From Arthrobacter sp. HMWF013 (GTDB taxonomy: Bacteria > Actinomycetota > Actinomycetes > Actinomycetales > Micrococcaceae): a DNA stretch of 38,434 bases. This document shows, one piece after another, positions 1,600-32,095 of the stretch. Positions within the stretch are counted from its first letter, which is position 1. The number at the start of each line of letters is the position of its first letter. Both the position numbers and the translations under genes were made by a program. The stretch spans positions 1-38,434 of the forward strand of contig NZ_QAIQ01000094.1 of assembly GCF_003061105.1 (NCBI RefSeq). The letters are read 5' to 3'. The notes below the pieces were generated by a model, which ran no database searches, was not told the origin of the DNA, and saw only the letters and a list, made by a program, of their open reading frames with translations.

Positions 1600-1627
1600 G
1601 GATGCCACTCTGCCATAGAAATTGAGC

Positions 1628-5769: not shown

Positions 5770-6215
5770 TCGACAGCCACGCTGTTCAAAGAGCATCGAC
5801 AATTCCATGCGACAATGACCTTCTCGAACCTATCGGAAGAGTGGTTTGGGCTGCCGTCAGGCTCCAGCACACGATACGCGACCTAATCGGCGCAATTGAA
5901 GGCGAGCTGTCAGCGCGTCCATTTGAACCGACGCTGGGAGGGGCAATTAGCAGCTTGCGAAAGCTGGCATCAACGTTGGACCCGGAGGTTCGGCAACCAA
6001 TCGAAGACTGGTGCAACGGAGTTGGCACTGAGGCCAAAAATGCCCGTGATTCTGTTCTGCACGCCGTTGCCTCGACCGCTGCGGATGGCAAACAGGCGAT
6101 TTCGAGGTATGGACGGCACGGGTCCGGTCGCTTCACCGCCGAAGAAATCAACATGATTGCACCGGTACTTTGGAGCTTGCCGCCGCTGACCTTTACGAGG
6201 CGAGCACCGGCTTGA
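5766..6215 (+). CDS. HEPN-like small protein inside the hsd operon
   Basis: 149 aa, mostly alpha-helical, of no recognised named family. It is translationally coupled to hsdS (ATGA overlap, GGAG 9 bases upstream) and ends 35 bases before hsdR, so it is a true operon member. In a helical context it has ARDSVLHA with R94-D95-x3-H99, the R[ND]xxxH pattern of HEPN ribonucleases. HEPN nucleases such as PrrC and RloC are known partners of type I systems, acting as a second line when restriction is blocked, but they are much larger. This protein has no ATPase domain, so any such role is inference. It could equally be a structural or antitoxin-like accessory; the motif could also be chance. Confidence 0.6.
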   Translation: MIDSHAVQRASTIPCDNDLLEPIGRVVWAAVRLQHTIRDLIGAIEGELSARPFEPTLGGAISSLRKLASTLDPEVRQPIEDWCNGVGTEAKNARDSVLHAVASTAADGKQAISRYGRHGSGRFTAEEINMIAPVLWSLPPLTFTRRAPA

Positions 6216-6250
6216 AAAGACCATGGAACTAATCAGGGGGAAATAGCACT

Positions 6251-9200
6251 ATGGCGTCCGTATTCAATGAAGCTGCCACCGTCCAGAAACCGACTGTTGA
6301 TCTGCTCGCCGCCAACGGCTGGACGTACGAGGCGGGTTCGGCTCTGCCGCGCGGGTTCGAAGAAGTCTTCGTTGATGACGACCTTGCTGAGGCGCTAATC
6401 AGACTCAACCCCCTGATCGCCATGAAAGAATCCCGCGTTGATGAAGTCCTTCCGCTGATCAAGTCCACGGTGCTCGCTGTGGGCGACGACGGGTTGGTAG
6501 CAACAAACCAGAAGATGATGCACTGGCTACGAGGCGAGAAGACTGTGCGGTTCGTGGGGGAGACCAGCGATACCCCGATCAAGCTCATTGATTACAACGA
6601 CCTCAGCAATAACACCTTCACTGTTTCTGACGAGGTGACTTTCGGCGTACCCGGAAATGAACGCCGGTTCGACATTGTGCTCTGGGTCAACGGTATCCCA
6701 CTGTCCGTAGGGGAGATCAAGTCCCCGATCAACAAGTCATGGGCCAACGGCGCACTGGATATTCACGCAGTCTATGAGGTCCAGAAACCGCAGTTTTTCG
6801 TACCCAACGTGCTGTCATTCGCCAGCGAGGGCAAAGAATTCCACTACGGTGCTGTCCGGTGCCCCATCGATCACTGGGAGATGTGGGGGTCCACGGCGGA
6901 CCCTTACAATCTTGGTGGCTGGGAACGCGTCAAGAACAGCGTCAACAGCCTATTGTCCCCAAAACGGCTGTTGTCCATCATTACCGACTTCACCTTGTAC
7001 GAGAACAAGGACAAAGACGGAGTGCCGCAGCTCATCAAGATCATCCCCCGGTATCCGCAGGTGGAAGCTGTCGAGGCCATCTACGAGCGCGTGCTTAGTA
7101 CCAAGGGTAGTCAGGGCTTGGTCATGCAAAATCAGGGCACGGGCAAGACTCTCGCCATGGCGTTTACCGCGATCAAGCTCTACCGCGAACGTGCTCTGAA
7201 GACTCCCACTATCGTTGCGGTGGCGGACCGGGTTGACTTGGTGGACCAGACGTTTGAGCAGTTCAAATCCACAGGCCTGCCGCGACTCATGCAGGCTAAC
7301 TCGACTGCGGAACTTCGAAATGAACTGAAGGACGAAGACCAGCGCGGGATCATCGTCACCACGATCCATAAATTTGCTGATGCTGGACTTTTGAACGACC
7401 GGAGCAACATCATTGTGCTTGTCGATGAAGCACACCGGACCACCGAAGGAATGCTCGGGCAGCAGATGCGTGAAGCACTTCCGAACGCCCAGTTCTTCGG
7501 GTTCACGGGTACGCCCATTGCCGACAAGGATCGCAACACCTTCCAGCTGTTCGGTGACTCCACTGATCCGGGCTGGGCGCTGAACACGTACACGCCGGAC
7601 CGCTCCATCGCCGACGGCACTACTGTTCCTATGCACGTTGCCGCTCGCTTAGTTGACTTCAAAATCGATAAGGAGCTTCTCGATGAAGCGTTCAAGGAGC
7701 TTGCCGAACTGAACCGGCTGTCAGACGAGATGCAGGAGTTGGTCAAGGGAAAGACCACAAGGCTCTCAACCATCATGTCCAACCCCCAGCGGGTGAAGGC
7801 AGTCTGCGCTGACATCGTCGAGCATTTCTACTCCCACATCAACCCGCTCGGGATGAAGGCACAGGTTGTCGCATATGACCGCACCCTGTGCGTCGCCTTC
7901 GAGAAAGAAATCAACAGTCTGCTTGAAGAGCGTCATCAGCTCGCGCTGGAGAAGGACACGGTGCACAAGAAGCACGAAGCCGTGGTCGTGATGAGCGCTG
8001 GGTCCAAGGACGATCCCGAAGAATGGAAACGCTACGACCTCTCGCGGCAGCAGACCAATGCGACGACAGACAGGTTCCGGAACTTCAACGACACTCTCAA
8101 GTTCCTGATCGTCACCAGCAAGCTTGGGACCGGCTTTGACGCTCCCATCGAGGGCGTCATGTATCTGGACAAGCCCCTGCGTCTGCACACGCTGTTCCAG
8201 ACGATCAGCAGGACGAACCGCAAGTGGCAGAACCCGAGGACGGGGCAAGAAAAGAAGTATGGCTTGATTGTTGACTACTTCGGTCTCGGGGACGAGATCG
8301 CCCGCGCGCTGAAACCCAGCGATCCAAACTTCAAGGGCAAACATGTCAGCGTCGAGGGACTCTTCCACGAATTCGAGATCGCGTTGGCTTCATGCTTGAA
8401 ACGGTTCGAGACCGTGGACCGGACTGACGGTGGGGCAGAAGCGTTCCATGGGGCGCTCCAGCAGATCGCCACCATCGAACAGAAAGACGCGTTCGCGAAG
8501 GAATTCGGGATGATGTCTGGTATCTGGGAGTTGTTATATCCGGACACCAAGCTGCTCAAGCACCGCGATGACTACCGCTGGCTCGCTGCGATCTATGACG
8601 CTGTGAAGCCATCAAATGCAGGGAACTTGTCACTGTGGGCGAAGCTGGGCGCTAAGACGCTCCAGCTCGTTCACGACCACATAGGGGACGTTACAGTCAA
8701 CGACAGCGGGATTGATGCGGTCATCGTAGACGAGGAGACCATTGCGAAGCTTCGGGCTCTGGGCGCTGTCAGACCGCTGGACGACAAAGACGGCGTTGAC
8801 GCAGTGGACGTTGACGACGTCATTGACAATATCTCCACGCGTCTGGCTAAGCGGCTCGCGGGGACGAACGGTGCAAGCTCGGTATACTTGAGCCTGTCGC
8901 AGCGGCTTGAGAAGCTCCGAGAGTCCGGCCTCCACCGGGCGAAGGATTCGGTTGATTTTCTCCGTAGTTTGTTGGAGTTGGCTAAGCAGCTCGTCGAAGC
9001 TGAGAAAGCTGAAGACGCACGAGGCGCGGAAGGGCTGTCGCTCCTGCCGGACGCCAATGTAGGCGCCCTGACCCAAATTCTCGAAGAGTACAAGCCGGAG
9101 AACACTCCAGTGCTAGTGTCTGCGGTCGTGGCGGACATTGATTCCATCGTTCGTGAGGTTAGGTACGACGGCTGGAGCAAGACCCGCGAGGGCGACAGGC

Positions 9201-9301
9201 TAGTCCGAAAGGAAATCCGGCTCGTCTTGAAGAAATTCATGTTGGAGACGAGCGGCCCGCTGTTCGACAGAACGTATGCTTACGTTGCTGAAAACTATTA
9301 G
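6251..9301 (+). CDS. hsdR: Type I restriction-modification system, endonuclease/translocase subunit HsdR
   Basis: 1016 aa, full HsdR length. The N-terminal nuclease domain has the PD-(D/E)XK residues D141 (RRFDIVLW) and E155-x-K157 (GEIKS). The SF2 helicase motor has Walker A NQGTGKT (294-300), DEAH (392-395), GFTGTP (motif III) and the C-terminal QTISRTNR (motif VI). The C-terminal part is helical and would bind HsdM/HsdS. It translocates DNA with ATP and cuts when translocation stalls. ATG 6251 follows an AGGGGG Shine-Dalgarno. No frameshift or missing key residue was seen, so the system looks functional. Confidence 0.96.
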   Translation: MASVFNEAATVQKPTVDLLAANGWTYEAGSALPRGFEEVFVDDDLAEALIRLNPLIAMKESRVDEVLPLIKSTVLAVGDDGLVATNQKMMHWLRGEKTVRFVGETSDTPIKLIDYNDLSNNTFTVSDEVTFGVPGNERRFDIVLWVNGIPLSVGEIKSPINKSWANGALDIHAVYEVQKPQFFVPNVLSFASEGKEFHYGAVRCPIDHWEMWGSTADPYNLGGWERVKNSVNSLLSPKRLLSIITDFTLYENKDKDGVPQLIKIIPRYPQVEAVEAIYERVLSTKGSQGLVMQNQGTGKTLAMAFTAIKLYRERALKTPTIVAVADRVDLVDQTFEQFKSTGLPRLMQANSTAELRNELKDEDQRGIIVTTIHKFADAGLLNDRSNIIVLVDEAHRTTEGMLGQQMREALPNAQFFGFTGTPIADKDRNTFQLFGDSTDPGWALNTYTPDRSIADGTTVPMHVAARLVDFKIDKELLDEAFKELAELNRLSDEMQELVKGKTTRLSTIMSNPQRVKAVCADIVEHFYSHINPLGMKAQVVAYDRTLCVAFEKEINSLLEERHQLALEKDTVHKKHEAVVVMSAGSKDDPEEWKRYDLSRQQTNATTDRFRNFNDTLKFLIVTSKLGTGFDAPIEGVMYLDKPLRLHTLFQTISRTNRKWQNPRTGQEKKYGLIVDYFGLGDEIARALKPSDPNFKGKHVSVEGLFHEFEIALASCLKRFETVDRTDGGAEAFHGALQQIATIEQKDAFAKEFGMMSGIWELLYPDTKLLKHRDDYRWLAAIYDAVKPSNAGNLSLWAKLGAKTLQLVHDHIGDVTVNDSGIDAVIVDEETIAKLRALGAVRPLDDKDGVDAVDVDDVIDNISTRLAKRLAGTNGASSVYLSLSQRLEKLRESGLHRAKDSVDFLRSLLELAKQLVEAEKAEDARGAEGLSLLPDANVGALTQILEEYKPENTPVLVSAVVADIDSIVREVRYDGWSKTREGDRLVRKEIRLVLKKFMLETSGPLFDRTYAYVAENY

Positions 9302-9758: not shown

Positions 9759-10010
9759 CACTCATACCCTCCCAGCAGGGGCTTGCGTCTTCCACGACCC
9801 GTCGCGGGGCTGTTGGACGCCCGTCTAACGACGAAGTACCTGTGGCAGCTTCCTCTCAATCGCCGGCGATTCTTCCCGGATCACGCGAGCGATGCCCAAG
9901 GGTGTCGGCGACCGCAACGCCAAGGTCTGGTCCCTGTCAACCCCCCCCGATATCGAAAGCATTCTATGGTTGGGAGGAGTGCCCGTTATGCAGGTCGAGT
10001 TGGGTGTGTC

Positions 10011-10532
10011 GTGAACCTTAGGGACGAGGGTTTCGGGCTCGCCAAGCATCCGGAGGTGGCGTACGACCTATTGCCTGATGATCAGTCTGGCGTGTACGCG
10101 TGGACGGTCACAACTGATGCCCTTGACTCGTTGGTGCCCGAAAATCTTCCTCGAATCCCGTCGGGGAGTGTTGTCTACATTGGCAAAGCGAACAAATTGA
10201 GAAAGCGTGCCCCCCATCACCGCTGGACAAGCAGTTCGTCGTCGCTGCGAAGGAATTTGGCGGGGATAATGGGGTTGCAGGGCCTTTGGCTGCCGCGAGC
10301 GTCAAAGCCCCGCTTGGTGCAGGAACATGAAATGGCACTTTCGCTGTGGATGCGATCCAATCTTGCTTTGTCTTGGCGTGCCGTTGATGAAGGCTATGTT
10401 CAGTTCGAGAAATTGCTCCTGAGCAAACTCACGCCGCCCCTAAACGTCGATCCGCCGGAGACCGAGCTGCAATGGTGGGTGTACGGTCAGTTGCAAAAGC
10501 TCAAGGATGAGGCTCTGCCGCCACATCAGTGA
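10011..10532 (+). CDS. GIY-YIG nuclease-like protein
   Basis: 173 aa from GTG 10011 (the frame is open from 9783). It has the GIY-YIG order: SGVYAW (GVY at 27-29), then VVYIGKANKLRKR (YIG at 56-58, R64), a histidine/arginine loop, and near the C-terminus QFEKLLLSKLTPPLN, where the metal-binding Glu is expected. The family makes single-metal DNA cuts. An 8-codon upstream reading frame (ATG 9988, after GGAGGA) ends in a TGA that overlaps the GTG start, which suggests translational coupling and supports this start. ATG 9966 is an alternative. It sits 84 bases upstream of a KAP ATPase and may work with it. Confidence 0.7.
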   Translation: MNLRDEGFGLAKHPEVAYDLLPDDQSGVYAWTVTTDALDSLVPENLPRIPSGSVVYIGKANKLRKRAPHHRWTSSSSSLRRNLAGIMGLQGLWLPRASKPRLVQEHEMALSLWMRSNLALSWRAVDEGYVQFEKLLLSKLTPPLNVDPPETELQWWVYGQLQKLKDEALPPHQ

Positions 10533-10616
10533 GCCGCCGACTGACGCTGACGATCGGTGTCTTGCATCGTCTCAAAGAAATCGCGGGCTGAACGTCGCGG
10601 AAAGAAAGTTTGGGCA

Positions 10617-12737
10617 ATGAACGAATCAGAATCCGCCGCTCCGTTCCGGAGTTCCTATGTCGCCTTTGCCGACGAAGAGATTTCAAGTGTTGGCGACGAC
10701 AAGCTATCACGTGCTCAGTTCGCGGGGCGGGTGGCAGAGCTAATCGAAAGCATTCCCATCGGTGCGGACAGCACGGTCATCGGGCTCATAGGTCCGTGGG
10801 GCGGGGGGAAGACGTCACTCCTCAACCTCATCCGAGCGGACCTTGCTGGGAGGGAGTCGATGGGAGTGGCTCAATTTACGCCATGGGCCGTAACTGACAG
10901 TCCTGCCCTAATGGTTGAGTTCTTTTCTACCCTTCTGAGCGCTCACGAGAGTCTGAAGTCTGTTCAGCAACGAGAAAAATGGAAGTCCTTGGCTCTGAAG
11001 ATGGGACCCATAGTGGGAAGTCTCGGCAGCATGGGTAAGATCACGCAAAGCGCTGTCGAGGCCTACCTTGAGGCGGGCAACTGGCAAAAGCAATTTAGGG
11101 CCCTCGACGAATCTATATCTGCCTCCGGCGTGAGAATCCTTATCACAGTTGACGATGTGGACCGGCTTCACGGCGATGAGATTCTCACGCTGATTAAGAC
11201 CATCCGAATGCTTGGCCGCTTTCACAACGTTCACTATTTGCTTGCGTATGATCACGGGGCACTTGTGGATGCGCTTAAACCGAGTGTCGGCGGAAATGCG
11301 CGCAGAGCTGGGGAGTATCTTGAAAAGATTGTTCAGTACCCATTAGATATCCCACCTGCTCAGCAGGTTCACCTGCAAGCGATGCTGGATGAAGGACTGG
11401 CCCACTTATTCTCCGATGATCCGTTTGCGATCCTCAGCGATGCTCAGGGCAGGTTCCAAGTTGCGTTTGAGCGCGAACTCAAGTGGCGTCTTACAACGGT
11501 GCGATCCGTGAAACGGTTCGTGGCCCAAGCAAACCACTACTATGCCCTGATCTCAGGACATGTGGACGTCTGCGATTTCCTTGTTCTCACGTTTCTTCGG
11601 CTTCACTTTCCGGCGGTTTACAACGCATTGCCGCAGTGGCGCCACGAACTACTCAGCAGTTACTCGGGTAACCAGCGCGATGCGGCTGAGCATTCCCGCA
11701 ACCTGTGGAAGATCCGGCTAGAAGGCTTAGTTGCCGGGCCTGAGGACGCGGAAATTCTCTTGCGTATCCTTAAAAGACTCTTTCCTGCGCCGTTCGTTAA
11801 CGAGGGGGAAACCCTTTTGCGGGGGCGAGTTTCGAATAGACACTATTTTGACAGGCACTTCGCATTCGGCCTCCCTGAAGGTGACGTGTCCGATCTCCAA
11901 GTACGTCAAGAGTTGCTCGGGCCAGTATCGCAAGGTGTTCGTGAAGTGGAAGCGTACGTCGAAACTTTTACCTCTCCCTCCAGCAGCGTGCGAAGACTTG
12001 CCGTAGACAAGGCGGCACACGTCATACATGAACTTGATGATCGGGAAATCCCAACTCTTACTAAGTTCGTTGTCTGGTTGATGGGGAGGGAGACGGAAGC
12101 TGATCCTCGCTACATGTTTGGCGACATACTTGGTGACCTGCTGTTACGGCATCCGTCAGCTACTTCCGATGAGGACTCCGACCGATTGCTGAACGACTTG
12201 CCCGGAGTCAGGTCCCTGCGTTCTGCTCTAGATCGTGTGGACGTACTGAAGGTAAATGAGACGGAGCAAGTACCTGAGGTGTCACCCAAGCTGATCCAAG
12301 GCAAAGCATTCCGCCGGTCCCTTACGCGTGTTGGGGTGCGCGACCTAATAGGGCTTGCCAACGTCGGCGAGGCGGGATGGCGGGATTTCATTGAGACGCA
12401 CGCCGTGTTAGAAGCGCACGGAGACATGCATCTCGTTCGCGGCCTTATTAGTAAGGCTTTGTCCGCGAATGAGCTTGACCTCGGCCAAGTTTCCGCCATG
12501 TTTGTCTATCCCGAAATTATGAATACTGCTGGGGAGCAGAGACTCCTTGACCTCGACTTGGATCGGCTCATGACACTTCTAGATGACGCCGCAGCGCGGA
12601 CTGCCCCGTTGCCCTCGTCGCTAGTGAGTGATGCGCTTGGCCATACAACGGACATCAGTTGGGAGCAACGGGTTATACGTGCTGCTCACAAAATCCAAAA
12701 ATGGCGACGCACCGCCTTCGAAGTCGGAGGCGACTAG
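10617..12737 (+). CDS. KAP-family P-loop NTPase
   Basis: 706 aa from ATG 10617 (GTG 10557 is an in-frame alternative). Walker A is GPWGGGKTS (59-67), the GxWGxGKS/T form of KAP NTPases. Walker B is ILITVDDVDRL (174-184), followed by the characteristic HYLLAYDHGALVDAL segment. The insert between them, which often holds membrane helices in this family, is only weakly hydrophobic here. The C-terminal half is helical with no known domain. KAP ATPases occur in phage-exclusion (PifA) and other defence settings. It is downstream of the GIY-YIG-like gene, so a nuclease/ATPase pair is possible. Confidence 0.85.
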   Translation: MNESESAAPFRSSYVAFADEEISSVGDDKLSRAQFAGRVAELIESIPIGADSTVIGLIGPWGGGKTSLLNLIRADLAGRESMGVAQFTPWAVTDSPALMVEFFSTLLSAHESLKSVQQREKWKSLALKMGPIVGSLGSMGKITQSAVEAYLEAGNWQKQFRALDESISASGVRILITVDDVDRLHGDEILTLIKTIRMLGRFHNVHYLLAYDHGALVDALKPSVGGNARRAGEYLEKIVQYPLDIPPAQQVHLQAMLDEGLAHLFSDDPFAILSDAQGRFQVAFERELKWRLTTVRSVKRFVAQANHYYALISGHVDVCDFLVLTFLRLHFPAVYNALPQWRHELLSSYSGNQRDAAEHSRNLWKIRLEGLVAGPEDAEILLRILKRLFPAPFVNEGETLLRGRVSNRHYFDRHFAFGLPEGDVSDLQVRQELLGPVSQGVREVEAYVETFTSPSSSVRRLAVDKAAHVIHELDDREIPTLTKFVVWLMGRETEADPRYMFGDILGDLLLRHPSATSDEDSDRLLNDLPGVRSLRSALDRVDVLKVNETEQVPEVSPKLIQGKAFRRSLTRVGVRDLIGLANVGEAGWRDFIETHAVLEAHGDMHLVRGLISKALSANELDLGQVSAMFVYPEIMNTAGEQRLLDLDLDRLMTLLDDAAARTAPLPSSLVSDALGHTTDISWEQRVIRAAHKIQKWRRTAFEVGGD

Positions 12738-14520: not shown

Positions 14521-15678
14521 TTGGTATCGAATGAGTGGACAGTACCGGAGATGCTCGCCTACGCGTTCAAGAGCCACCGACGCGGTCTTTCTAGCAACGC
14601 GTCGCTACGCGGGGAAAGTTTTGTCGAATGGTGTATCCAGTATGCGTGTTGCTGGGACGAACAAGGGCAGCTTTTGCTCGATGCTGTCTATCAGGGACAG
14701 GACAACCCGATCTTTCGTCGTCTTAAATCTCAAATTGTTGACTCCTTGAAGCCGGGTAGCAGACCCGACCTAGAGATTTTCTATAGCCTCGCAACATCTG
14801 AGCAACACAGTATCCTCGTGGAGTTGAAAATTGATGCGGCGTTGACCTCGGCGCAGAAAAAGTCCGCCTACGCAGATGTCTTCGTGTGCAGTACCCCGCA
14901 GAAGTCCCGTATTTCTCTGCACCATGAGTCTGATCCGCAGGTGCGGCTGCTTTCGTGGAGCGAGCTGTTCGAGGAAATTTCTCAGTCACCTCGCGCCGAA
15001 AATACAGACCTATCGCTGTGGAGAATGATTTGCTCACTGGGGGAAGACCTCGCACGGGACGCCCGAGACCTTCAGCCGCTTTCAAGTCCGGGAGCCCTGT
15101 TCGACCAAAAAGTGGCCGACAACTACAGCACAGTGATGACCCTCATGCAGGACATCCTCGAAGTACTGGGGCACCCACCGCTATTCCCTCCGCCTCCCAA
15201 GATGAAGGGGGACATCGGGCTCATTAAATCCGGTGGTGACCGTAGCACCAGCCTGATCTTCACCCCCGAGTCCATGAGCAGTCCGATTAGCGTTGGGTTC
15301 ATTAACTACAACAAGTACCTGCATATTCTTGATGCGGGCGCCCAAGGGTCCTACGAGTCTCCCAAAACACTAACGGAGCAGCACCTCCCAGTGCGAGAAG
15401 GCGCGATTCGCCCCGCTGGAGTCTTTTTTCAGAATGAGTTGTCTGCGATCAAGTGGCAATCGCAGGACAGTGCCGTGGGTCGCTATCTTCACTCTTTCTT
15501 GCAGGAGCTACGGGACATCTTCAAGGAGAATGCAGACGTTTCAATGCACCCCGTCCCCCTCTCTGACAAGCATGTCGGGTACTTGCTGCAACGCGGGGAC
15601 CGTCGCTTTTTCGCACTCTTCGACGCGCAGCGCTGGGCTCGTATGCCTGCTGCTGGTCCGTTCGTCGTGCGCCGATAA
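14521..15678 (+). CDS. PD-(D/E)XK nuclease-like protein
   Basis: 385 aa from TTG 14521, chosen because GGGGGAG lies 6 bases upstream. Residues about 80-117 have the PD-(D/E)XK core: RPDLEIFY with D83, then the strand SILVELKIDAALTSAQ with E101-x-K103, and Q112 with a following Tyr. The spacing matches the nuclease-like families that read 'E-N/L-K-I-D-A-x-L-T-x-x-Q'. The 270-residue C-terminal region is unrecognised and has a Pro-rich loop (HPPLFPPPPKM). It is a lone gene, 650 bases ahead of the VWA/phosphatase/kinase cluster. A role in DNA cleavage is inferred; a frame-shifted tail may extend it (see 15671). Confidence 0.65.
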   Translation: MVSNEWTVPEMLAYAFKSHRRGLSSNASLRGESFVEWCIQYACCWDEQGQLLLDAVYQGQDNPIFRRLKSQIVDSLKPGSRPDLEIFYSLATSEQHSILVELKIDAALTSAQKKSAYADVFVCSTPQKSRISLHHESDPQVRLLSWSELFEEISQSPRAENTDLSLWRMICSLGEDLARDARDLQPLSSPGALFDQKVADNYSTVMTLMQDILEVLGHPPLFPPPPKMKGDIGLIKSGGDRSTSLIFTPESMSSPISVGFINYNKYLHILDAGAQGSYESPKTLTEQHLPVREGAIRPAGVFFQNELSAIKWQSQDSAVGRYLHSFLQELRDIFKENADVSMHPVPLSDKHVGYLLQRGDRRFFALFDAQRWARMPAAGPFVVRR

Positions 15679-16324: not shown

Positions 16325-16996
16325 ATGCAGGGCATTTCTTACTCCGTTGATCTTGTGCTGTGCATTGATCAAACCGGCAGCATGGGTCATATCATCGAGA
16401 AAGTTAAAGAGCATGCACTCACGTTCGGTGCTGACGTGCGCCGGACGCTGGAGGAAAAAGACAAGTCAATAAACGCCCTGCGAGTCAAAGTAATCGGGTT
16501 TCGTGACTACTATTTTGATGGTGACGAGTCAATGGAGGAGTCCGAATTTTTCTCCTTGCCCGAAGACGATTCAGCCTACAACTCCTTCGTTAAGGGCCTT
16601 CGAGCAGACGGCGGCGGAGACGAGCCCGAAAGTGGTCTGGAAGCCTTGGCCATCGCAATGCAATCTAAGTGGGCCAAGGATACCAAACACAGACAGGTCA
16701 TAGTGGTTTGGACGGATGCAAGCGCTCATCCGTTGGAGAAGGCAGCATCGGCGCGCCCATCAAACTACCCCAGTACTATGCCGCAAAGCTTCGATGATCT
16801 GACGGATATGTGGGAGGGCCAGTCCTACATGTCGGGTAGCAACAAACGCCTCATAATGTTCACCCCTGACGCAGCGGGCTGGACCGACATCGCCGCCAAT
16901 TGGGAACAGACAGTCCATTTCCCCTCTAAGGCTGGGGCGGGGCTTCAAGACCACGAATACTCTGAGATTCTCGACTCAATTGCAAATAGTGTCTGA
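16325..16996 (+). CDS. TerY-like VWA domain protein
   Basis: 223 aa, the size of stand-alone VWA proteins of the TerY type. The metal-ion-dependent adhesion site is clear: DQTGSM (D15-x-T17-x-S19, plus M20), with GGGDEPESGLEAL and VVWTDASAH further on supplying the remaining metal ligands. It is therefore a cytoplasmic VWA protein that likely binds a partner through a divalent metal. It overlaps the downstream PP2C gene, and the kinase follows; this is the TerY-P order of VWA, phosphatase and kinase. It may be an adaptor or substrate of the kinase/phosphatase pair (inference). Confidence 0.85.
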   Translation: MQGISYSVDLVLCIDQTGSMGHIIEKVKEHALTFGADVRRTLEEKDKSINALRVKVIGFRDYYFDGDESMEESEFFSLPEDDSAYNSFVKGLRADGGGDEPESGLEALAIAMQSKWAKDTKHRQVIVVWTDASAHPLEKAASARPSNYPSTMPQSFDDLTDMWEGQSYMSGSNKRLIMFTPDAAGWTDIAANWEQTVHFPSKAGAGLQDHEYSEILDSIANSV

Positions 16997-18035
16997 GAAT
17001 ACCGTTAGTCCATCTGTTCCATGGGCGATCTGTATGGCGTCATTCAACTATGAGAAGCGCGAAGGTCGCGGCGAGGACGCTGATCCGCTCACACTCGTCA
17101 ATGACGAGAGTGTGTGGATTGGCGTCTTCGACGGCATGGGTGGCGCGGGAGCCCAAATGATCGAAACCCCTGAGGGGCTTCGTAGCGCGGCTCACGTGGC
17201 ATCAAGACATGCAGTCGGTCTTACTGCGGACTGGATTCGGAGTTCTGCGGAGATGGCTGCCAAAGAAGCTGCGCAGGACTTACACGATTTCCTGAAGGCG
17301 GGGCTTGACTCAAAACAACGGGAGTTGGCCCCGGTTGAATCGCGAATTCGGAGCAGGCTAATTAGAAAACTTCCGACCACTGCTGCCATCCTGCAAATCT
17401 GTGATCATCAGGCGGGGACGTACGAATTACGTGCCTTTTGGGCCGGGGACTCACGTGTCTTCGCCCTGACCCCGAGCCACGGACTATTGCAGCTAACGGT
17501 GGATCATCTCAAGGGGGGCCCTGACCCCTACGAAAACCTTTCCAGTGATGCGCCCATGAGCAACTGTCTGGAAGCTGATGAAGAATTCTTCATCGAGGAA
17601 GCGCTCCTCAGGCTAGAGGAGCCGTTCATTGCGATCGCTGCTACGGACGGTTGCTTCGGTTACTTCAATACTCCGATGGAGTTCGAGGAGTTGTTGGTCG
17701 AATCGGTCTACGAGGCACAGGACTTTAATGCGTGGCGCGACATCTTAATCGAAAAAATCTGTAAGGCGACCGGGGATGACGCCAGTATGGCCTTTGTTGT
17801 TGTTGGTCTGTCCTCAATCGATGAGTTCAAGGCGGCAATGCAGGAGGGGCGCTTGCGCCTTTACGACAACTTCATGAGCAAGTTGAACACTATCGAATCG
17901 ACAGTTCGCCTCACACGAGTCCAGCTTGAAGAACTTAAACGTGCGGAGGAAGAGCAGCTATCTTCGATGAAGACCCTGTGGCAACGGTACAAGGAGACCT
18001 ATCAACCTGAGTTGCCAAGGCTGCGCTCAAAGTGA
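16989..18035 (+). CDS. PP2C-family Ser/Thr protein phosphatase
   Basis: 348 aa from GTG 16989 (TTG 16980 is an alternative). All core PP2C metal-binding motifs are present: RGED near residue 30, VFDGMGG (D48), FWAGDSRVF (D154), ATDGCFGYF (D220) and GDDASMAFV (D263/D264). The last 60 residues form a coiled-coil tail rich in Lys, Arg and Glu. It would dephosphorylate Ser/Thr residues, most simply those modified by the kinase encoded next door. It overlaps both neighbours (8 bases with the VWA gene, 4 with the kinase), so the three are translated as a unit. Confidence 0.93.
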   Translation: MSENTVSPSVPWAICMASFNYEKREGRGEDADPLTLVNDESVWIGVFDGMGGAGAQMIETPEGLRSAAHVASRHAVGLTADWIRSSAEMAAKEAAQDLHDFLKAGLDSKQRELAPVESRIRSRLIRKLPTTAAILQICDHQAGTYELRAFWAGDSRVFALTPSHGLLQLTVDHLKGGPDPYENLSSDAPMSNCLEADEEFFIEEALLRLEEPFIAIAATDGCFGYFNTPMEFEELLVESVYEAQDFNAWRDILIEKICKATGDDASMAFVVVGLSSIDEFKAAMQEGRLRLYDNFMSKLNTIESTVRLTRVQLEELKRAEEEQLSSMKTLWQRYKETYQPELPRLRSK

Positions 18036-19111
18036 CGACCATAAACGGATACACTCTGACCTCAGATTTCACTACAGCCGGGGGCGGTCAGTGCAGATGG
18101 GCCTTCGCTGAGAAAGGTGGGACGTCTTACTTTCTTAAGGAGTTCCTTCGACCCACCTTCCCGCTTCCCGATGGACCGGGGTCAGAAGCGACTAAGTCGA
18201 GGAAACGGGCACAGTGTGCTGTGTTTGAAACGCGTCACAGGGAGTTGCAGCAACTGCTTGGTGAGATTTCCTCGGAAGGCGGGAATCTAATAGTTACCAA
18301 GGAATTCTTCCGCGAAAAGGCTAAGTACTACAAAGTAACTGCGAAGGTGGATGTAAGTTCATCGTCGATGAACGAAGTCAGTAGGCTCCCACCTATTCAG
18401 CGGGTCGTGCTCGCATCGACGGTCGCGCACAGCGTTGGGATATTGCACCGTCTCGGCATCGTTCACGGTGACATTAAGCCAGCAAACGTCCTTCTCAAAG
18501 TTACTGAAAAGGGCTACCACACAGCTAAGCTAATCGACTTTGACGACTGCTTCAAAGCGGGCGAACCAGCCCCCAGCGAGGAACTCGTTGTCGATCTGGC
18601 TTACGCTGCCCCTGAAGCGAATAAGTACCTGCGAGAAGAAGGGCCGGGCGAGGATGTGACTTGCGCGGCGGACATTTTCGCTCTGGGTCTGATCTTCTGC
18701 CAGTATCTCACGGGGCAAAAGCCCCAATTTGTAGGCGGCCCAGCAGCGCCCTCCGGAGCAGCGCCTGCCGACTTACTCATGGCGGGAAGTGAGCTATCTA
18801 CCGGTCTGGAACACGGCTGGCCCGATGCCCATAAGCTCATATCATCGATGCTTGCGCCGGATTTCTCCGATCGCCCCAGTATTGGCAAAGTAGCGGAAGA
18901 ACTACAGGCGATTCGGCGGTCAGATTTGACTGGCGTCAGTATAGGAGCATCAGCTCGTTCATCTCGGCTTAAGGGGCGCCTCGCGACAGTTCCCCGCAGT
19001 ACTGAGCCTAAGTCGATACGGGTAGAGACAGGGTCAAAGGCCCTGAGCGACGCCACCGCGCCGAGCCGTTTGCGCGGCTCGCTGACGCGCAAGACCAGCA
19101 AAGAATCGTAG
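18032..19111 (+). CDS. Ser/Thr protein kinase of the TerY-P triad
   Basis: 359 aa from GTG 18032, overlapping the PP2C stop (GTGA). Kinase motifs: a Gly-rich loop (AGGGQ), Lys36 (FLKEF), catalytic loop VHGDIKPAN (D147, K149, N152), DFD in place of DFG (169-171), AAPE (192-195) and D214 in ADIFALG. Asp in place of Gly at the DFG site is unusual but occurs in some bacterial kinases. After about residue 290 the tail is Ser/Arg-rich and disordered-looking, a likely site of autophosphorylation. Catalytic residues are all present, so it should be active and countered by the PP2C gene. Confidence 0.93.
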   Translation: MTTINGYTLTSDFTTAGGGQCRWAFAEKGGTSYFLKEFLRPTFPLPDGPGSEATKSRKRAQCAVFETRHRELQQLLGEISSEGGNLIVTKEFFREKAKYYKVTAKVDVSSSSMNEVSRLPPIQRVVLASTVAHSVGILHRLGIVHGDIKPANVLLKVTEKGYHTAKLIDFDDCFKAGEPAPSEELVVDLAYAAPEANKYLREEGPGEDVTCAADIFALGLIFCQYLTGQKPQFVGGPAAPSGAAPADLLMAGSELSTGLEHGWPDAHKLISSMLAPDFSDRPSIGKVAEELQAIRRSDLTGVSIGASARSSRLKGRLATVPRSTEPKSIRVETGSKALSDATAPSRLRGSLTRKTSKES

Positions 19112-19112
19112 T

Positions 19113-19880
19113 TTGACGTCGCGAGTTTGTGAGGTCTGCGATAACCCAAACCTGCCCGAGGCATCACATTGCGCTTGGTGTGAGACGACTTTGCCTCGAT
19201 CGGCGATTACTCTTACCCGTGTCGCAACTGACGGTGAGGGGACTGGCGTCAAGGCAACGCGTTACCGCATTTGGCCGTTCGCGGTAGGGGCTCTAGCCGT
19301 AACCCTAGGAGGATTCGCGCTTGCATTTAGTACCTCCACTAGCGGTCCTGACGCCGGCGACGGCAGCTCTGCCCCTGCCTCTGTGTCACTGAGCATCGGA
19401 CCTAGTGCCTCCTCTTCAGCCTCGGAGCCCACTTACTCGATTGCTGGCGCATCTGTCGGTGAATGCCTGAATACAAATCCCATTCACCTTATTCGGTCCG
19501 GATTTGAGGCCGAGCCTGTGCCGTGCGATGGTGGCGAAAGCTTGACGAGAGTCTTGAACGTAAGTGAGGTAAAACCAACAGATGAGGCGTGTTCCACTTT
19601 TGGACGTCTGTACGCCTTCCATAAAGATGCTTTTTACTGCTTTGAGGTAGTTCTTCGAGCTGGACAGTGTGTACAGGCCAAAGAAGCAAACGACGGCGTT
19701 CGTGCGCAGTTTGGCCTCGTCAATAATTGTGGAAGCCCGCTCGATGCGGAGTATCCCGTCAGCTTGAGGCTCTTGAGCGTGAGTCCTCCCATGGAAGATA
19801 CAAATGTCATTTGTTCGGCGGAAAATCTCAGATACGAACTCCCCGATCTCGGACTCATCGTATGCGCGCAAAGAATATGA
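19113..19880 (+). CDS. Zn-ribbon protein with membrane anchor and extracytoplasmic domain
   Basis: 255 aa from TTG 19113, directly after the kinase. A zinc ribbon occupies residues 6-23 (C6-x2-C9, C20-x2-C23). A short basic linker leads to a membrane helix (about 50-72, WPFAVGALAVTLGGFALAF), a low-complexity Ser/Ala linker, and a C-terminal extracytoplasmic domain of about 140 residues with conserved cysteines (VGECL, VPCDGG, AGQCVQ, NNCGSP) likely forming disulfides. Zn-ribbon-plus-membrane proteins next to TerY-P genes suggest a link between an external signal and the cytoplasmic kinase. No known receptor family was recognised. Confidence 0.75.
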   Translation: MTSRVCEVCDNPNLPEASHCAWCETTLPRSAITLTRVATDGEGTGVKATRYRIWPFAVGALAVTLGGFALAFSTSTSGPDAGDGSSAPASVSLSIGPSASSSASEPTYSIAGASVGECLNTNPIHLIRSGFEAEPVPCDGGESLTRVLNVSEVKPTDEACSTFGRLYAFHKDAFYCFEVVLRAGQCVQAKEANDGVRAQFGLVNNCGSPLDAEYPVSLRLLSVSPPMEDTNVICSAENLRYELPDLGLIVCAQRI

Positions 19881-20261: not shown

Positions 20262-21725
20262 TCAGCGCTGTAGATCGACGAGGAAAGGCTGATCGCTGAC
20301 GGCCCATGAGTGAATCACTGCGATTCGACCATCGATCGGGGGAGACATTATTTCTCTTTGCCCCAATACGGGGACGGAAGCATAAGTGGCGGAGGAAGTC
20401 GCAGGACTTCTTCCCGCCGAACGGGTTCGTGTTACCGACGGGACGGAATGATGGCCAAGTCGGTCGGACATATGACGCGCCGTCAATGGTGACGAATTCT
20501 CCATGACAATGAGCGTCCCAGCGTTTGAAACAATCGACGAGCGTTCATTGTCGTTTTTGAAATGCGCGAGGTCCTGAACAGCCAGCACCACTGCGACCGA
20601 TGCTCCACGTGCCACGCTTAGCAGCTCGTCATAGTCGATCCGGTCGGAGAGCCGAGCGGCTTCATCGAGGACTAACAAGACAGGACAGCTCTCTATACTA
20701 AATCGATCGAATGCCTTGTGGAGCACCTGTTTGATGAAAAGGCTTGAAAATGTGACGGACATCGGTCCATCGTGCATTGGCGCAACGACGGAGACGACTT
20801 GAGGGCTGCTCAGTACGTCGGAGGTCTTGAAGGTGGGGCGGCGCGAAACCGCCTCAATGCTGGGTGAGGATATGGCATCGAGTTTGGCAAGAACGCCGCT
20901 GACTCTTTTGCTGTAGTCCTCCGGATACAAATCTGCTAAGTCCCTGAGTCGAGTGGCTGCTGGGGACCGAGGGTCTCTGGCAACAATGCGTCGAACGCTT
21001 TCCTGATCAGCAAGCGTTCTCATCAGCGTAGAAGTGGAAGTCGGCGTTTTCAGCCGCGATTCCCTCAGGGATTCCAAAAGGCCTCGCAGGCAGCGATTGT
21101 CCTGATCGAAAAAGTGTTTGTCCGTTCCGGGCGGGGCGGTTCTGCCTATTATGGAGGCACAAGCATTGTCGATTGCCCGGTCAGAGTCCAGCTCGGCGAG
21201 CCAATTCCAGCGAGCCGATGTCTCGGGTTTTCGGTAATCAATTTCGGATATTCTTGCCCCGGTTGGCAATCCGTTGGCACGAACTTGATCCATCAAGTCG
21301 CCTTTTACATCCACTGTGATGACCGAGTAACCCGCTGCAACTCCGGCGGCAATCCACGGAGCAATGATGCTGCTGGTTTTGCCCGACCCCTGTTTTCCTG
21401 CAAGGAGTACGTGGCCGTCGATCACGCTGCTCGGAAAACCGAAACTCCCTAGAGAACCTCGTCGAACATCCATGAACCTGCCGAGCCGGAAAGGAGCAGT
21501 CTCGTACTCCTTGGGAATTCGACGGACGTTGAGAAGCCCTCGGTAGTCATGAAAACCTGTGGCTGAGCCGGGTTCGGGGGAGCGATCGCCCGGAGCCAAA
21601 AATCCTCGGTACGCCGCACGGTTCGATAAATGGTTATCGAGCGCCTCGGTCGCCGCTTGTGACGCCCGACCTGTGGCTCGACCCAATGCTGCCGTGGTCT
21701 TGAACACTGCTCGCCAATAGTCCAA
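20262..21725 (-). CDS. VirD4/TraG-like type IV coupling ATPase without N-terminal membrane helices
   Basis: 487 aa from TTG 21725. Walker A is AGKQGSGKTSS (109-119), then VITVDVKGDL, where coupling proteins read DxKG(D/E), and Walker B VLLVLDEAARL (349-359). The C-terminal part keeps the coupling-protein signature (AVVLAVQDLAHF, then NAGTLIVMEN, then ARHMSDRLG). Classical coupling proteins start with two membrane helices; here the N-terminal 90 residues are polar, so the protein is probably soluble. It would pump DNA in plasmid or element transfer. No VirB4 or other secretion gene is visible, so transfer would need a helper. Start is uncertain: no ATG/GTG lies between it and an upstream in-frame TAG. 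Confidence 0.85.
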   Translation of the reverse strand: MDYWRAVFKTTAALGRATGRASQAATEALDNHLSNRAAYRGFLAPGDRSPEPGSATGFHDYRGLLNVRRIPKEYETAPFRLGRFMDVRRGSLGSFGFPSSVIDGHVLLAGKQGSGKTSSIIAPWIAAGVAAGYSVITVDVKGDLMDQVRANGLPTGARISEIDYRKPETSARWNWLAELDSDRAIDNACASIIGRTAPPGTDKHFFDQDNRCLRGLLESLRESRLKTPTSTSTLMRTLADQESVRRIVARDPRSPAATRLRDLADLYPEDYSKRVSGVLAKLDAISSPSIEAVSRRPTFKTSDVLSSPQVVSVVAPMHDGPMSVTFSSLFIKQVLHKAFDRFSIESCPVLLVLDEAARLSDRIDYDELLSVARGASVAVVLAVQDLAHFKNDNERSSIVSNAGTLIVMENSSPLTARHMSDRLGHHSVPSVTRTRSAGRSPATSSATYASVPVLGQREIMSPPIDGRIAVIHSWAVSDQPFLVDLQR

Positions 21726-28625: not shown

Positions 28626-31439
28626 CTAGTTATTCCCCTCGGCATCGGATGGATGCACGAGCCGTATGTCATGGCTGCCGTACCCCAAGAGTTCGGCGAT
28701 TAAATCAGAAGCAAATGCATATTGGGACCTGTTCAAAATTGCTCTGTCCGACTCATTCTCGGCGCTGATTCCAAAGAAGTCGAGAGTGTCTTCTCGGGTC
28801 AGGGGTTCGTCGGTTATGGTTACCGTCACCGCAGGCGTGGCGCTTCTAACCCGAAGGCAAGTGGCGCCGTGGCTATCTCCCCACAGTTCACGAGACGGGT
28901 AAATTACAACGTGGTGCGCAACGGCTGCTGCATCCAGTAGCGTTTCTTCCTCGCCAATACCAGCAGCCAGCATGGTCCGTGCGTCTGCTAAGCACTGGTG
29001 CTGGTGCGCTGTTATCTCGGACTCCAGATAGGATTCGTCCAAGGGTATTCGCTGCACTTTTTGGAACTTATTGAACTCTTCCAGAGCTTTGGTGACTTCT
29101 TCCACGACCTCAGTGAACGGCTTGTGCGTCCTGCTAGATTTTTCTGAGTAGGAGTTCAGCGACCAACCACGAATGCTTTCGCCCGGAAGGACGATTCCGT
29201 CTCGTGCGAGTTTAAACCCGAATAATGGATCTTCAAACGGGTTGAAGGTATATTCCGGCACATCAATTAGGTCAGCGCGGGCTACATTGCCCGATAGTCG
29301 AACCTCCATTATCGACGAAGGGGCGTGGCTTAATTCCACAAGTACCGATCGGGCTTCGAGAAGGTCGGAGGCTGCCAGTTCCGTCTCTGTGAGTATCTTC
29401 CTGACGGCTTCCAGAGCGTCCACGCGACGCTGCGCTGAAGCCAGATGGAAATGCGCGCCAACCAGCGGAGCCTGTTCCTCGGAATCGAGCAAGCCTAAAA
29501 GGTGGAAGACATTCTCTATCCGGTGCGAGCGGACCCTAGGTGTCGGCAGCCGATGCAGAGAGGAGATTGTAAGTGGTTCCTCCATTATCCGAACCTCAGA
29601 CGTCGTAAGCCGCTCCACTGCGTCATCACGGTCACTGGCAGTCTGGAAGGCGATTCCAGCGAAAAAGGGACGGCTACCAAGGCGGGCAGATACTGCTAGC
29701 GCGGCTTCGGCATGGACAGGAGAATCCCCACGCGTTTCCTCCACTGCTTGATGAGCGGCTTTTGCTAGTTCCGTGAGAGAAAGCGAACCGATACCATAGG
29801 TCGCTGCGACAAACGGTGACACGAGCGGTTGAAAATGCTGCTGGAAGAGGTTGCTCGCTATGCTAGGAATAGTCCATCGACCGAATTCGCTGGTCATCCT
29901 TCCGAGAATTGCGGCATAGGTGAGCTTGTCGGGGATCAAAGCTGTCGTTATAGAGATGGATTCGTTGCTTTTGGTGAAGGCAAAGCCCGCCTCTTCGAGT
30001 TCTTGCAGCGCATCGACGCTGTCGCCCCGCACTCCTATGACGTCCGCAGCGTAACTAAGCAGCAAAGGCGTTTGCACAAATTTGCCGCTATTGTCGCGGT
30101 TAGGCTCCATCAGTTCGAGCAATGCAAATAGCACAGCCATGCTGTCTCTAGACGCCGCGTTTAGCTTGGCAATCTGCACGTACTTCGAGCGGACGGGATC
30201 AGCTTGGGATAACTCGGGTAGGCAGGCGGCTGCCCAGAGGGGTATGTAGTTCAGCGTTTCTAGCCGCGAATCAAGGGAAGCCGTGGCTGTCGATGCGGCC
30301 TCATCCCGGTCCGAACTATTCATAATGGTTCGCCACAACAGGTCCCGTCGCCGGTCGTGGAACCAAGCCACATTTTCGTTATCGAAGATAAAGATTCGGC
30401 GGTTAAGAAGCTCATCCCGGACCGCCGACCACGCATTTTGGTCAACTTGGAGCATTTGCACTATGAAATCATCCGGCGGGCATTCGTTGAAAGCCGCTAG
30501 CTTCCGAGCAGCAGTTTTCGCGTGGACGCTCAGTTGATTCCAAGAGGTCCTCATCAACTCTTGAAACGCGACAGCCGTTTGAATATTTTCGATCCGGAGA
30601 CCAGCTTGTGCCCCGCTTATGGCTTCCACCATGAAAAGTGGATATCCGCTTGTCACTCGAAGGAATACCTCCGATGACGGGGCATCGACGTTGGCATCAA
30701 GTAACCATGCACGAATGCTTTCGAGGCTAAGTGGGAGGACTTCAACTATCTCTGCGCCATTGCCAGCTAGCTGCGCTGGAAATGTCTGGTTCTCAGCCGC
30801 CGCAGTACTCAAGCCGACAATAACTTGCACGCGCTCTGGAAGCATCTCAGCCATGTCGAGCAGAATCGCTTTGTCACCCGGCGACAGCCTCTCCGCGCGG
30901 TCAAGAACGATACGCAAGTTGCAGTCAGTAAGTTTCACGATTTCCTCGGCGAACTTGAGAACAATTTCCACCGTGCCCAACTCAGATGAACTGGCAAGGC
31001 GCTGACGCAGGGACTCATCGCCGGTCTGAAGAATGTCCTTGATCATGTTGCCGATGGATTCCCCAAATTCCGGACCCAATCTTGACTTCAGTAGGTTGAG
31101 GATCTCCGTTCCGACAACGCGAGCTAGTTCCTTCCCTCCGACAGCGCCGAGCCGTCTAGCTGCGCCACCCAGCGACTCAAGGGTCGCGTCCACGGCAGAG
31201 CGATCGGCTAAGTAAACGTCCAGAATTGCAGCCAGTTGATCGATGAGGGAATTGTGCAGTTGTCCGGGAGCCGAGCGCAGATTGGTTACGGGAGCGGTTA
31301 TCCATCCAACGCGACTATCACGAGCGACTTCGCCGAGCAGGCTTGACTTGCCGACGCCGGAGTCGCCGACAACAACAATGAAGCCCTTCTCGGCACTGTG
31401 CACTCGGCGGCGATCTTCGTCTCGTCCGTATAGACCCAT
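28626..31439 (-). CDS. STAND-like P-loop NTPase, 937 aa
   Basis: A single 937-aa protein. Walker A GDSGVGKSS (25-33) starts almost at the N-terminus. Walker B is LRIVLDRAERL (175-185), and TSGYPLFM (263-270) matches the conserved 'GxP' segment of STAND ATPases. The remaining 660 residues look like helical repeats with no recognised effector domain; a C-terminal region begins near YTFNPFEDPLFGF. STAND proteins act as signal-sensing switches, in bacteria often as antiphage sensors. ATG 31439 is preceded by AGGAG with only one base between, and an in-frame stop lies just upstream. It is divergent from a small three-gene operon with a HEPN-like gene. Confidence 0.75.
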   Translation of the reverse strand: MGLYGRDEDRRRVHSAEKGFIVVVGDSGVGKSSLLGEVARDSRVGWITAPVTNLRSAPGQLHNSLIDQLAAILDVYLADRSAVDATLESLGGAARRLGAVGGKELARVVGTEILNLLKSRLGPEFGESIGNMIKDILQTGDESLRQRLASSSELGTVEIVLKFAEEIVKLTDCNLRIVLDRAERLSPGDKAILLDMAEMLPERVQVIVGLSTAAAENQTFPAQLAGNGAEIVEVLPLSLESIRAWLLDANVDAPSSEVFLRVTSGYPLFMVEAISGAQAGLRIENIQTAVAFQELMRTSWNQLSVHAKTAARKLAAFNECPPDDFIVQMLQVDQNAWSAVRDELLNRRIFIFDNENVAWFHDRRRDLLWRTIMNSSDRDEAASTATASLDSRLETLNYIPLWAAACLPELSQADPVRSKYVQIAKLNAASRDSMAVLFALLELMEPNRDNSGKFVQTPLLLSYAADVIGVRGDSVDALQELEEAGFAFTKSNESISITTALIPDKLTYAAILGRMTSEFGRWTIPSIASNLFQQHFQPLVSPFVAATYGIGSLSLTELAKAAHQAVEETRGDSPVHAEAALAVSARLGSRPFFAGIAFQTASDRDDAVERLTTSEVRIMEEPLTISSLHRLPTPRVRSHRIENVFHLLGLLDSEEQAPLVGAHFHLASAQRRVDALEAVRKILTETELAASDLLEARSVLVELSHAPSSIMEVRLSGNVARADLIDVPEYTFNPFEDPLFGFKLARDGIVLPGESIRGWSLNSYSEKSSRTHKPFTEVVEEVTKALEEFNKFQKVQRIPLDESYLESEITAHQHQCLADARTMLAAGIGEEETLLDAAAVAHHVVIYPSRELWGDSHGATCLRVRSATPAVTVTITDEPLTREDTLDFFGISAENESDRAILNRSQYAFASDLIAELLGYGSHDIRLVHPSDAEGNN

Positions 31440-31747: not shown

Positions 31748-32095
31748 ATGGATCGAAACGAGAAGAAAAGGCTTCGTGACTCCATAGGAGAGCACCTGGA
31801 TATATCCAAAACTCGTCTCACGGACGAGGAAGCGAATGTCTTGAGCGACTTTATCGACAACTACGACTCCACGTACAAGGGGAAGACCGACACCAGAAGC
31901 AGAACTTACGACGGGTGGAGTTCGGACGGCAAGTACACTCGCCGGGAGAGTCGCACCGAAACCTTCACTGACGACATCGGTATCCGCGAAGAATACGAGT
32001 ACCACGATGACGACGGTCAGACTGGCCATCACACCCAAGAGATCAAAGACGCCCGAAGCATCCTCAACAAGTTGAAGGGCTGGCGAAATGTCTGA
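31748..32095 (+). CDS. Small acidic/charged protein, partner of the HEPN-like gene
   Basis: 115 aa from ATG 31748 (AGGAAC just upstream). N-terminal helices (EKKRLRDSIGEHLDIS, then TDEEANVLSDFIDNY), a charged middle rich in Asp, Arg and Thr, and a C-terminal helix (QEIKDARSILNKLKGWRNV). No family recognised. It overlaps the Rx5H HEPN-like gene by 8 bases, so their synthesis is coupled. This order fits an antitoxin-like partner, which is inference only. Confidence 0.65.
   Translation: MDRNEKKRLRDSIGEHLDISKTRLTDEEANVLSDFIDNYDSTYKGKTDTRSRTYDGWSSDGKYTRRESRTETFTDDIGIREEYEYHDDDGQTGHHTQEIKDARSILNKLKGWRNV

What the first reader, a model, noticed from the sequence alone, without database searches (positions are those of the whole stretch)
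16325..19880. TerY-P triad (VWA, PP2C, Ser/Thr kinase) with a Zn-ribbon membrane protein and no ter genes
The VWA, PP2C and kinase genes overlap and all keep their catalytic or metal-binding motifs. This is the TerY-P order named in comparative studies of tellurium-resistance systems. The fourth gene adds a zinc ribbon, a membrane helix and a cysteine-bearing outer domain, which could feed a signal to the kinase. No TerB/C/D/E genes are visible, so it may be a stand-alone stress or antiphage module.
Basis: partly seen in the sequence, partly recalled or inferred. Interest (0 to 1): 0.75.

Follow-up and report, generated by a model that had tools for sequence, protein, structure and literature searches.

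The report
Bacterial phospho-switch cassette with zinc-finger partner
Four joined genes encode a metal-binding adhesion domain, a protein kinase, the opposing phosphatase and a zinc-finger membrane protein; related gene sets occur in several bacterial phyla, and the zinc finger and a repeated short motif on the kinase tail suggest a simple molecular switch that can be tested.

Summary
Window 16325-19880 encodes a VWA protein, a PP2C-fold phosphatase, a Ser/Thr kinase and a zinc-finger/TM protein, nearly end to end. It is a TerY-P-type triad, but neither the published kinase-ZnR fusion nor the antiphage kinase-OB-fold form. Of 82 loci examined, 70 hold the full triad. Of 56 usable VWA-PP2C-STK triads, 25, in six phyla, have a RanBP2-like zinc-finger gene directly after the kinase; 36 have some zinc ribbon there. 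The finger is conserved, what follows it is not (a TM in 10 of 25).

Two new points. The finger resembles, weakly by score, that of archaeal ArnA, which binds the vWA protein ArnB under kinase/phosphatase control (PMC12852372). And the predicted-disordered kinase tail carries a short motif (SRLKGRL, SRLRGSL in the window) that recurs across phyla beyond shuffles.

Best reading: an Arn-like phosphorylation switch with interchangeable zinc-finger transducers. Antiphage function is possible, since the window is a defence-rich mobile element, but not shown: sampled neighbours of relatives are ordinary genes. Novelty: new variant of a known kind.

The parts
16325..16996 (+). TerY-like VWA protein, 223 aa, MIDAS residues kept (D15-x-T17-x-S19, T130-D131)
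16980..18035 (+). PP2C-type phosphatase, 351 aa at most (TTG start, uncertain), with a predicted 62-residue C-terminal helix (280-341)
17340..17369 (+). motif-like segment SRIRSRLIRK (PP2C residues 121-130), in a predicted coil (116-132) before the strand that begins at 133
18032..19111 (+). Ser/Thr protein kinase, 359 aa; domain about 1-302, tail 303-359 mostly under pLDDT 50
18962..18982 (+). first tail motif SRLKGRL, kinase residues 311-317
19064..19084 (+). second tail motif SRLRGSL, kinase residues 345-351
19113..19880 (+). zinc-finger membrane protein, 255 aa: finger (residues 6-23), TM from about 53, part with eight cysteines after it
19128..19181 (+). RanBP2-like zinc finger C-x2-C-x3-N-x6-C-x2-C (the usual Trp two before the first Cys is Arg here)

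Best explanation
A self-contained phosphorylation switch. Shown by sequence and models: a VWA protein with an intact metal site, a PP2C-fold phosphatase and a kinase with its catalytic residues are encoded as one unit, and in relatives a small RanBP2-like zinc-finger protein is very often the next gene. Inferred: the VWA protein and the zinc-finger protein form a complex whose tightness is set by phosphorylation, in the manner of archaeal ArnB-ArnA under kinase ArnC and phosphatase PP2A; the kinase is brought to the complex by the repeated SxLRGxL motif of its disordered tail, most likely through the strongly conserved VWA protein; PP2C resets the switch. The part after the finger is the exchangeable input or output module. 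In the window it is a membrane anchor with a cysteine-bearing segment predicted outside, so the window's version would couple an envelope or extracellular signal to the cytoplasmic switch. What the switch finally controls (a stress response or antiphage defence) is open.
For: Triad in 70 of 82 loci. RanBP2-like gene directly after the kinase in 25 of 56 usable VWA-PP2C-STK triads, against 0 of 156 distant genes; six phyla by the labels. ArnA is the best PDB match of the finger profile (E 0.007), and passages of PMC12852372 report a cocrystal in which the RanBP2-type finger of ArnA binds unphosphorylated ArnB, with phosphorylation switching a loose complex to a tight one; finger spacing C-x2-C-x10-C-x2-C is the same. 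Tail motif: 29 matches in 53 tails against 1.7 in shuffles, maximum 8; model trained on non-actinobacterial tails finds 15 of 20 actinobacterial tails (0.2 expected), window included; the reverse finds 8 of 33 (0.33 expected). 36 of 70 kinases have a broad form in the last 75 residues against 3.2 in shuffles. The motif goes with the finger: 22 of 25 against 14 of 45. Tail predicted disordered. VWA is the best conserved of the three: mean column identity 59%, against 33% for PP2C and kinase.
Against: No experiment; no interaction was modelled (the tool folds one chain). The finger match to ArnA is weak, and rubredoxins and a tRNA synthetase score close to it; the window's own finger scores 0.86 against Pfam RanBP and 0.14 against DZR, both far under cut-off, and it lacks the Trp. 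The Arn system has an FHA domain, a larger vWA protein and a PPP-type phosphatase, none of which is here. 31 of 70 loci have neither finger after the kinase nor tail motif; many Clostridia have zinc-ribbon genes upstream instead. The motif was first seen by eye on all tails, so the held-out test is not fully independent, and 11 of its 15 actinobacterial successes lie in one tight clade. The association of motif and finger was not corrected for descent. Loci with VWA but no kinase show no motif in neighbours, apart from the one that has a PP2C, so the VWA as binding partner is a guess.
Confidence: 0.5

Rival explanations
1. A stand-alone antiphage system of the TerY-P kind: infection is sensed through the VWA or zinc-finger protein and the kinase then halts or kills the infected cell or blocks the phage.
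For: Three-gene VWA/phosphatase/kinase systems protect against T7-like phages (passage in PMC7699616) and against Autographiviridae in Pseudomonas (passages in PMC10889362). The window is defence-rich and mobile: type I RM 3030-9301, PifA-like KAP NTPase 10557-12737 (PADLOC E 8.3e-52), an AAA/STAND-like protein, a weak AbiU2-like hit (0.0021, under cut-off), serine recombinases near both ends. In L023 the gene just upstream is a STAND-like TPR protein (nSTAND E 5.4e-4, under cut-off) whose C-terminus carries the tail motif: the best score among 158 near and 2,903 other ORFs.
Against: 82 neighbours (of 133 candidates) from 19 finger-type loci: 13 PADLOC families at 1e-8, each in one protein; no Pfam family of the 25 shown in more than two proteins; neighbours include flagellar, ligase and metabolic genes. 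The 28 VWA proteins scanned match no PADLOC family below 0.017, although I did not check that PADLOC holds TerY-P models. No effector was identified.
Confidence: 0.3
2. A stress or envelope-signalling operon with no role in defence, the zinc-finger protein acting as a redox or metal sensor at the membrane.
For: Ordinary neighbours in relatives. Gene 4 has eight cysteines after its TM. The TerY-P literature proposes a metal-sensing phosphorylation switch (Anantharaman 2012, as cited in PMC11090510).
Against: Soluble fingers without any TM in 15 of 25 cases; the outer part of gene 4 is not conserved, and its apparent 4+4 cysteine repeat is not significant (106 of 500 shuffles as good).
Confidence: 0.3
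3. The finger binds nucleic acid, and the module is a nucleic-acid-triggered kinase, as proposed for the ZnR and OB-fold of other TerY-P kinases.
For: The proposal in PMC11090510 (passage). RanBP2-type fingers include RNA binders such as ZRANB2, which is among the PDB matches (E 0.31). In L063 a zinc ribbon is fused to the kinase; in L050 a very similar one follows the kinase stop.
Against: A TM-anchored finger is an awkward nucleic-acid sensor; in the ArnA cocrystal the finger binds protein.
Confidence: 0.15

Closest known systems
TerY-P triad (Anantharaman 2012, recalled and as cited in PMC11090510)
   Same: Adjacent VWA, PP2C and Ser/Thr kinase; a zinc ribbon tied to the kinase
   Different: The zinc ribbon is a separate RanBP2-like finger protein with a TM, not the kinase C-terminus; no TerD in the genome; not beside a CoCoNuT (no McrB-like hit among the 30 window proteins scanned with Pfam)
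Antiphage TerY-P of Gao 2020 (recalled; passages in PMC7699616 and PMC11090510)
   Same: Stand-alone three-enzyme module
   Different: Kinase with OB-fold there; here a tail predicted disordered with two short motifs, plus a fourth gene
Kinase + PP2C + vWA theme of actinobacterial GAP1-N2 systems (Kaur 2020, PMC7159879, passages)
   Different: There part of GTPase-centred systems; no GTPase/GAP1 gene was recognised here (no dedicated search was made)
ArnA-ArnB-ArnC-PP2A of Sulfolobales (PMC6509490, PMC12852372, PMC10470591, passages)
   Same: RanBP2-type finger protein plus vWA protein under a kinase and a phosphatase
   Different: FHA domain in ArnA, extra domains in ArnB, PP2A-type phosphatase, archaeal; no FHA here
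Kinase of MADS (MAD6) and Mokosh (MkoA)
   Same: Kinase-domain similarity only (PADLOC 4.9e-19 and 1.5e-20)
   Different: Partial matches; no VWA/PP2C pair in those profiles

Membership tests
TerY-P triad | Adjacent VWA, PP2C and Ser/Thr kinase genes | tested here: met
TerY-P triad | Kinase fused at its C-terminus to a zinc ribbon (form described in PMC11090510) | tested here: not met
   Tail has no cysteine pairs and is mostly under pLDDT 50; the finger is a separate ORF
TerY-P triad | Sequence match to a published TerY-P model | tested here: inconclusive
   No PADLOC family for window VWA or PP2C nor below 0.017 for 28 VWA proteins; presence of TerY-P models in that library not verified
Antiphage TerY-P (Gao 2020) | Kinase with C-terminal OB-fold | tested here: not met
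   No folded domain after residue 302 in the model
Antiphage TerY-P (Gao 2020) | Protection against phage | not testable with these tools
   experiment needed
Ter tellurite-resistance cluster | TerD-family genes | tested here: not met
   0 of 1 genome, 94.1% complete MAG; control genomes ring in 2 of 14
RanBP2-type zinc fingers | W-x-C-x(2,4)-C-x3-N-x6-C-x2-C (consensus recalled) | tested here: inconclusive
   Window keeps cysteine spacing and Asn, lacks Trp; Pfam RanBP 0.86 for the window, best zinc family in 6 of 8 finger proteins scanned but under cut-off in each
Arn (ArnA-ArnB) | FHA domain on the finger protein | tested here: not met
   No FHA family in gene 4
GAP1-N2 GTPase systems | DO-GTPase and GAP1 genes beside the kinase | not tested
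   No GTPase family seen among 30 window proteins scanned with Pfam, but no GAP1 model was used

The most novel reading that the evidence does not exclude
A competitive docking switch of a kind not described for bacteria: the kinase tail and the phosphatase present look-alike SxLRGxL segments to one hub, probably the VWA protein, so that only one of the two enzymes is engaged at a time. RanBP2-like finger proteins with interchangeable bodies are the clients, in Arn fashion, and some STAND-type sensors (L023) have taken on the same motif to plug into the switch.
Probability: 0.25. Interest if true: 0.8.

Novelty: new variant of a known kind. Interest (0 to 1): 0.58.

Why it matters
TerY-P modules are known to act against phages in two reports seen here, yet how the VWA protein, the kinase and the phosphatase talk to each other is not known to me. 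The four-gene form gives concrete, small, testable parts: a 20-residue finger, a 7-residue tail motif present twice, and a 223-residue VWA protein. It also suggests that the crenarchaeal Arn switch and a widespread bacterial cassette use the same pairing of a RanBP2-type finger with a vWA protein. If the shared-motif reading is right, clients and effectors of such modules could be found by motif.

Tried and rejected
Relatives by single-protein search: PP2C in viral contigs gave none; VWA alignment in viral contigs gave two 25-28% VWA matches only. Plasmids: VWA and PP2C of the family on two plasmids, Herpetosiphon and Calothrix. Gene-4 outer part: 5 of 396 phylum genomes, own included; the other four are short or low-complexity matches, and the one that covers the outer part (L095) lies antisense to a histidine-kinase-like frame; plasmids gave only an unrelated permease stretch. 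An internal repeat in the outer part: not significant. VWA-only loci as evidence that VWA binds the motif: 12 loci, motif only in the PP2C of L037 and in a short minus-strand ORF of L027, so no support. Covariation of PP2C and kinase motifs was seen by eye in cyanobacteria but not tested, because shared descent confounds it; in the PP2C-STK-VWA clade the PP2C segment departs from the motif. The PP2C resemblance rests on one homologous position: best match at the loop in 57 of 70, median score reached by 2.8% of 540 control ORFs, so it is suggestive only. Membership of the window in MADS: rejected, kinase and VirD4-like matches are partial. Contextual promoters and terminators: no more than in shuffles. 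Class-wide search added seven loci outside those already held, three with a full triad, all PP2C-STK-VWA with finger genes after it.

Rows dropped before counts: L009 and L011 as duplicates of L031 and L028; 12 of 82 loci without a full triad; 2 triads at contig edges; 14 kinases without the catalytic-loop pattern and 3 short tails. A wider control (346 other genes, near ones included) shows 16 RanBP2-like and 27 any-zinc cases, because further finger genes lie near the triads. Gene calls in GC-rich loci are greedy ORFs and include antisense ones. Neighbour scan: my notebook says 20 loci, the call holds 19.
Full report
1. What is there. The window is the whole contig 68 of a 731-contig MAG, 94.1% complete. 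A named relative found in the same order is an Intrasporangiaceae genome (contig length equal to that of L028), so the host is an actinobacterium of that order. The four ORFs are at 16325-16996, 16980-18035, 18032-19111 and 19113-19880, overlapping or 1 nt apart, as expected of one transcription unit; no promoter-like or terminator-like signal exceeds shuffles. Catalytic and metal residues are kept in the VWA, PP2C and kinase (with DFD for DFG). The PP2C is too divergent for Pfam on its own, but its model (pLDDT 94.0) falls on solved PP2C structures and 35 of 51 relatives match PP2C_2. TerD is absent from the MAG.

2. Relatives. Within the genus the set is not seen: 0 of 60 other genomes has more than a 32-36% match to part of another VWA protein. 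In the order, 1 of 395 other genomes has a convincing PP2C relative, and in the class 8 of 344 other genomes have a strong VWA relative. A scan of 84,980 species genomes with four VWA proteins returned 80 loci (of 268, capped). With one Calothrix plasmid locus and the window, 82 loci were examined: 70 hold VWA, PP2C and kinase; 58 in the order VWA-PP2C-STK, 10 as PP2C-STK-VWA, one each of two others. This is patchy, horizontally moved distribution (inference).

3. The fourth gene. Across the loci the strict pattern W.C..C...N.{5,6}C..C occurs 40 times within 5 kb of a triad (807,807 bases) and not at all in the remaining 376,354 bases. In 25 of 56 usable VWA-PP2C-STK triads a RanBP2-like finger gene begins at the kinase stop, and in 36 some zinc ribbon does; distant genes of the same loci give 0 and 2 of 156. 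The 25 are spread over Actinomycetota, Bacteroidota, Chloroflexota, Pseudomonadota, Spirochaetota and Bacillota (labels), with 8 label changes on the VWA tree against 20.8 in shuffles; the window's own place on that tree is not resolved. The cysteines and the Asn are invariant in 15 aligned finger proteins, the rest is not alignable; a TM follows in 10 of 25. The window's finger keeps the cysteines and the Asn but not the Trp. In L063 a zinc ribbon is part of the kinase and in L050 a very similar one follows its stop codon, which suggests that fused and separate forms are versions of one design.

4. The kinase tail. After the kinase domain the window protein is predicted disordered (residues 303-359), but it holds SRLKGRL and SRLRGSL. 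Such motifs recur in tails that otherwise do not align: [LI][RK]G[KST] 29 times in 53 tails against a shuffled mean of 1.7 and maximum of 8. Trained on tails outside Actinomycetota, a position model recovers 15 of 20 actinobacterial tails at a 1% false rate, the window among them; the reverse recovers 8 of 33. The motif pattern had been noticed on all tails beforehand, and 11 of the 15 are one clade, so the independent support is smaller than the counts. Of 25 finger-type triads 22 have the motif, of the other 45, 14. Three further loci outside the first set carry related pairs such as SRLRTNL and SRVRINW. Clostridial kinases mostly lack it; several end in a different shared form, roughly FFxxAGDL.

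5. Look-alike segments elsewhere. The same position model has its best match in the PP2C proteins at one place, a loop just before the PTT strand, in 57 of 70; in the window it is SRIRSRLIRK in a predicted coil. Since all PP2Cs are related this is one event, and 2.8% of control ORFs score as high. The highest score of any non-triad ORF is the C-terminus of a STAND-like TPR protein directly upstream of the L023 triad.

6. Mechanism. RanBP2-type fingers and vWA proteins are a known pair: in passages of PMC12852372 the finger of ArnA is seen bound to unphosphorylated ArnB, and kinase ArnC and phosphatase PP2A move the pair between loose and tight states; ArnA is also the best, though weak, PDB match of the finger profile. 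The cassette has all four roles in one operon. I therefore propose an Arn-like switch in which the tail motif recruits the kinase and the finger protein carries the signal in or out. The steps shown are gene content, conservation and folds; binding, phosphorylation and output are inferred.

7. Defence or not. The window island has type I RM, a PifA-like NTPase, an AAA/STAND-like gene, a VirD4-like gene and serine recombinases near both ends, and its GC (mostly 0.53-0.60) is below that of three readable host stretches (0.626-0.663). But 82 neighbours of 19 related loci show no repeated defence family. TerY-P modules of other builds do protect against phages (passages in PMC7699616 and PMC10889362). 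I hold defence at about 0.3.

8. Known or new. A separate zinc-ribbon or TM partner of such kinases is touched on in PMC7159879 (passage) and a fused ZnR in PMC11090510. I found no paper that joins a RanBP2-type finger with bacterial kinases or reports the tail motif; these were two narrow searches of an open-access library that lacks the founding TerY-P paper.

Noticed in passing
window 35885-37264 (+), 81-1034 (+), 1021-1686 (-): Large serine recombinase, a second fragment with only a recombinase zinc ribbon, and a resolvase lie near the contig ends: the contig looks like a mobile element.
   Followed up: partly
window 3030-9301: Type I restriction-modification genes (HsdM, HsdS, HsdR families) with a 149-aa ORF of no known family between HsdS and HsdR.
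   Followed up: partly
window 10557-12737 and 9783-10532: KAP NTPase resembling PifA, preceded by a GIY-YIG protein.
   Followed up: no
window 20262-21725 (-): VirD4/TraG-like coupling protein that also matches MAD8 of MADS partially; no relaxase was seen among the proteins scanned.
   Followed up: partly
window 14521-15678: 385-aa protein with a VELKID segment that looks like a PD-(D/E)xK nuclease motif (by eye); no hit in the libraries tried.
   Followed up: no
window 28626-31439 (-) and 32088-32915: AAA/STAND-like 937-aa protein and a weak HEPN_AbiU2-like protein, both possible defence genes.
   Followed up: no
L054, L056, L069, L077, L082, L087 and others: Clostridial kinases of this family end in a shared form like FFxxAGDL; zinc-ribbon proteins upstream in L053 and L056 end in a similar one.
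   Followed up: no
L023:6819-9992: STAND-like TPR protein directly upstream of a triad, with the kinase-tail motif at its own C-terminus.
   Followed up: partly
L016, L017, L018, L022, L024, L027: Bacteroidota with a close VWA relative (56-59% identical) but no PP2C or kinase of the family in the stretch held.
   Followed up: partly
L063, L050: The same kind of zinc ribbon fused to the kinase in one and placed after its stop codon in the other.
   Followed up: no
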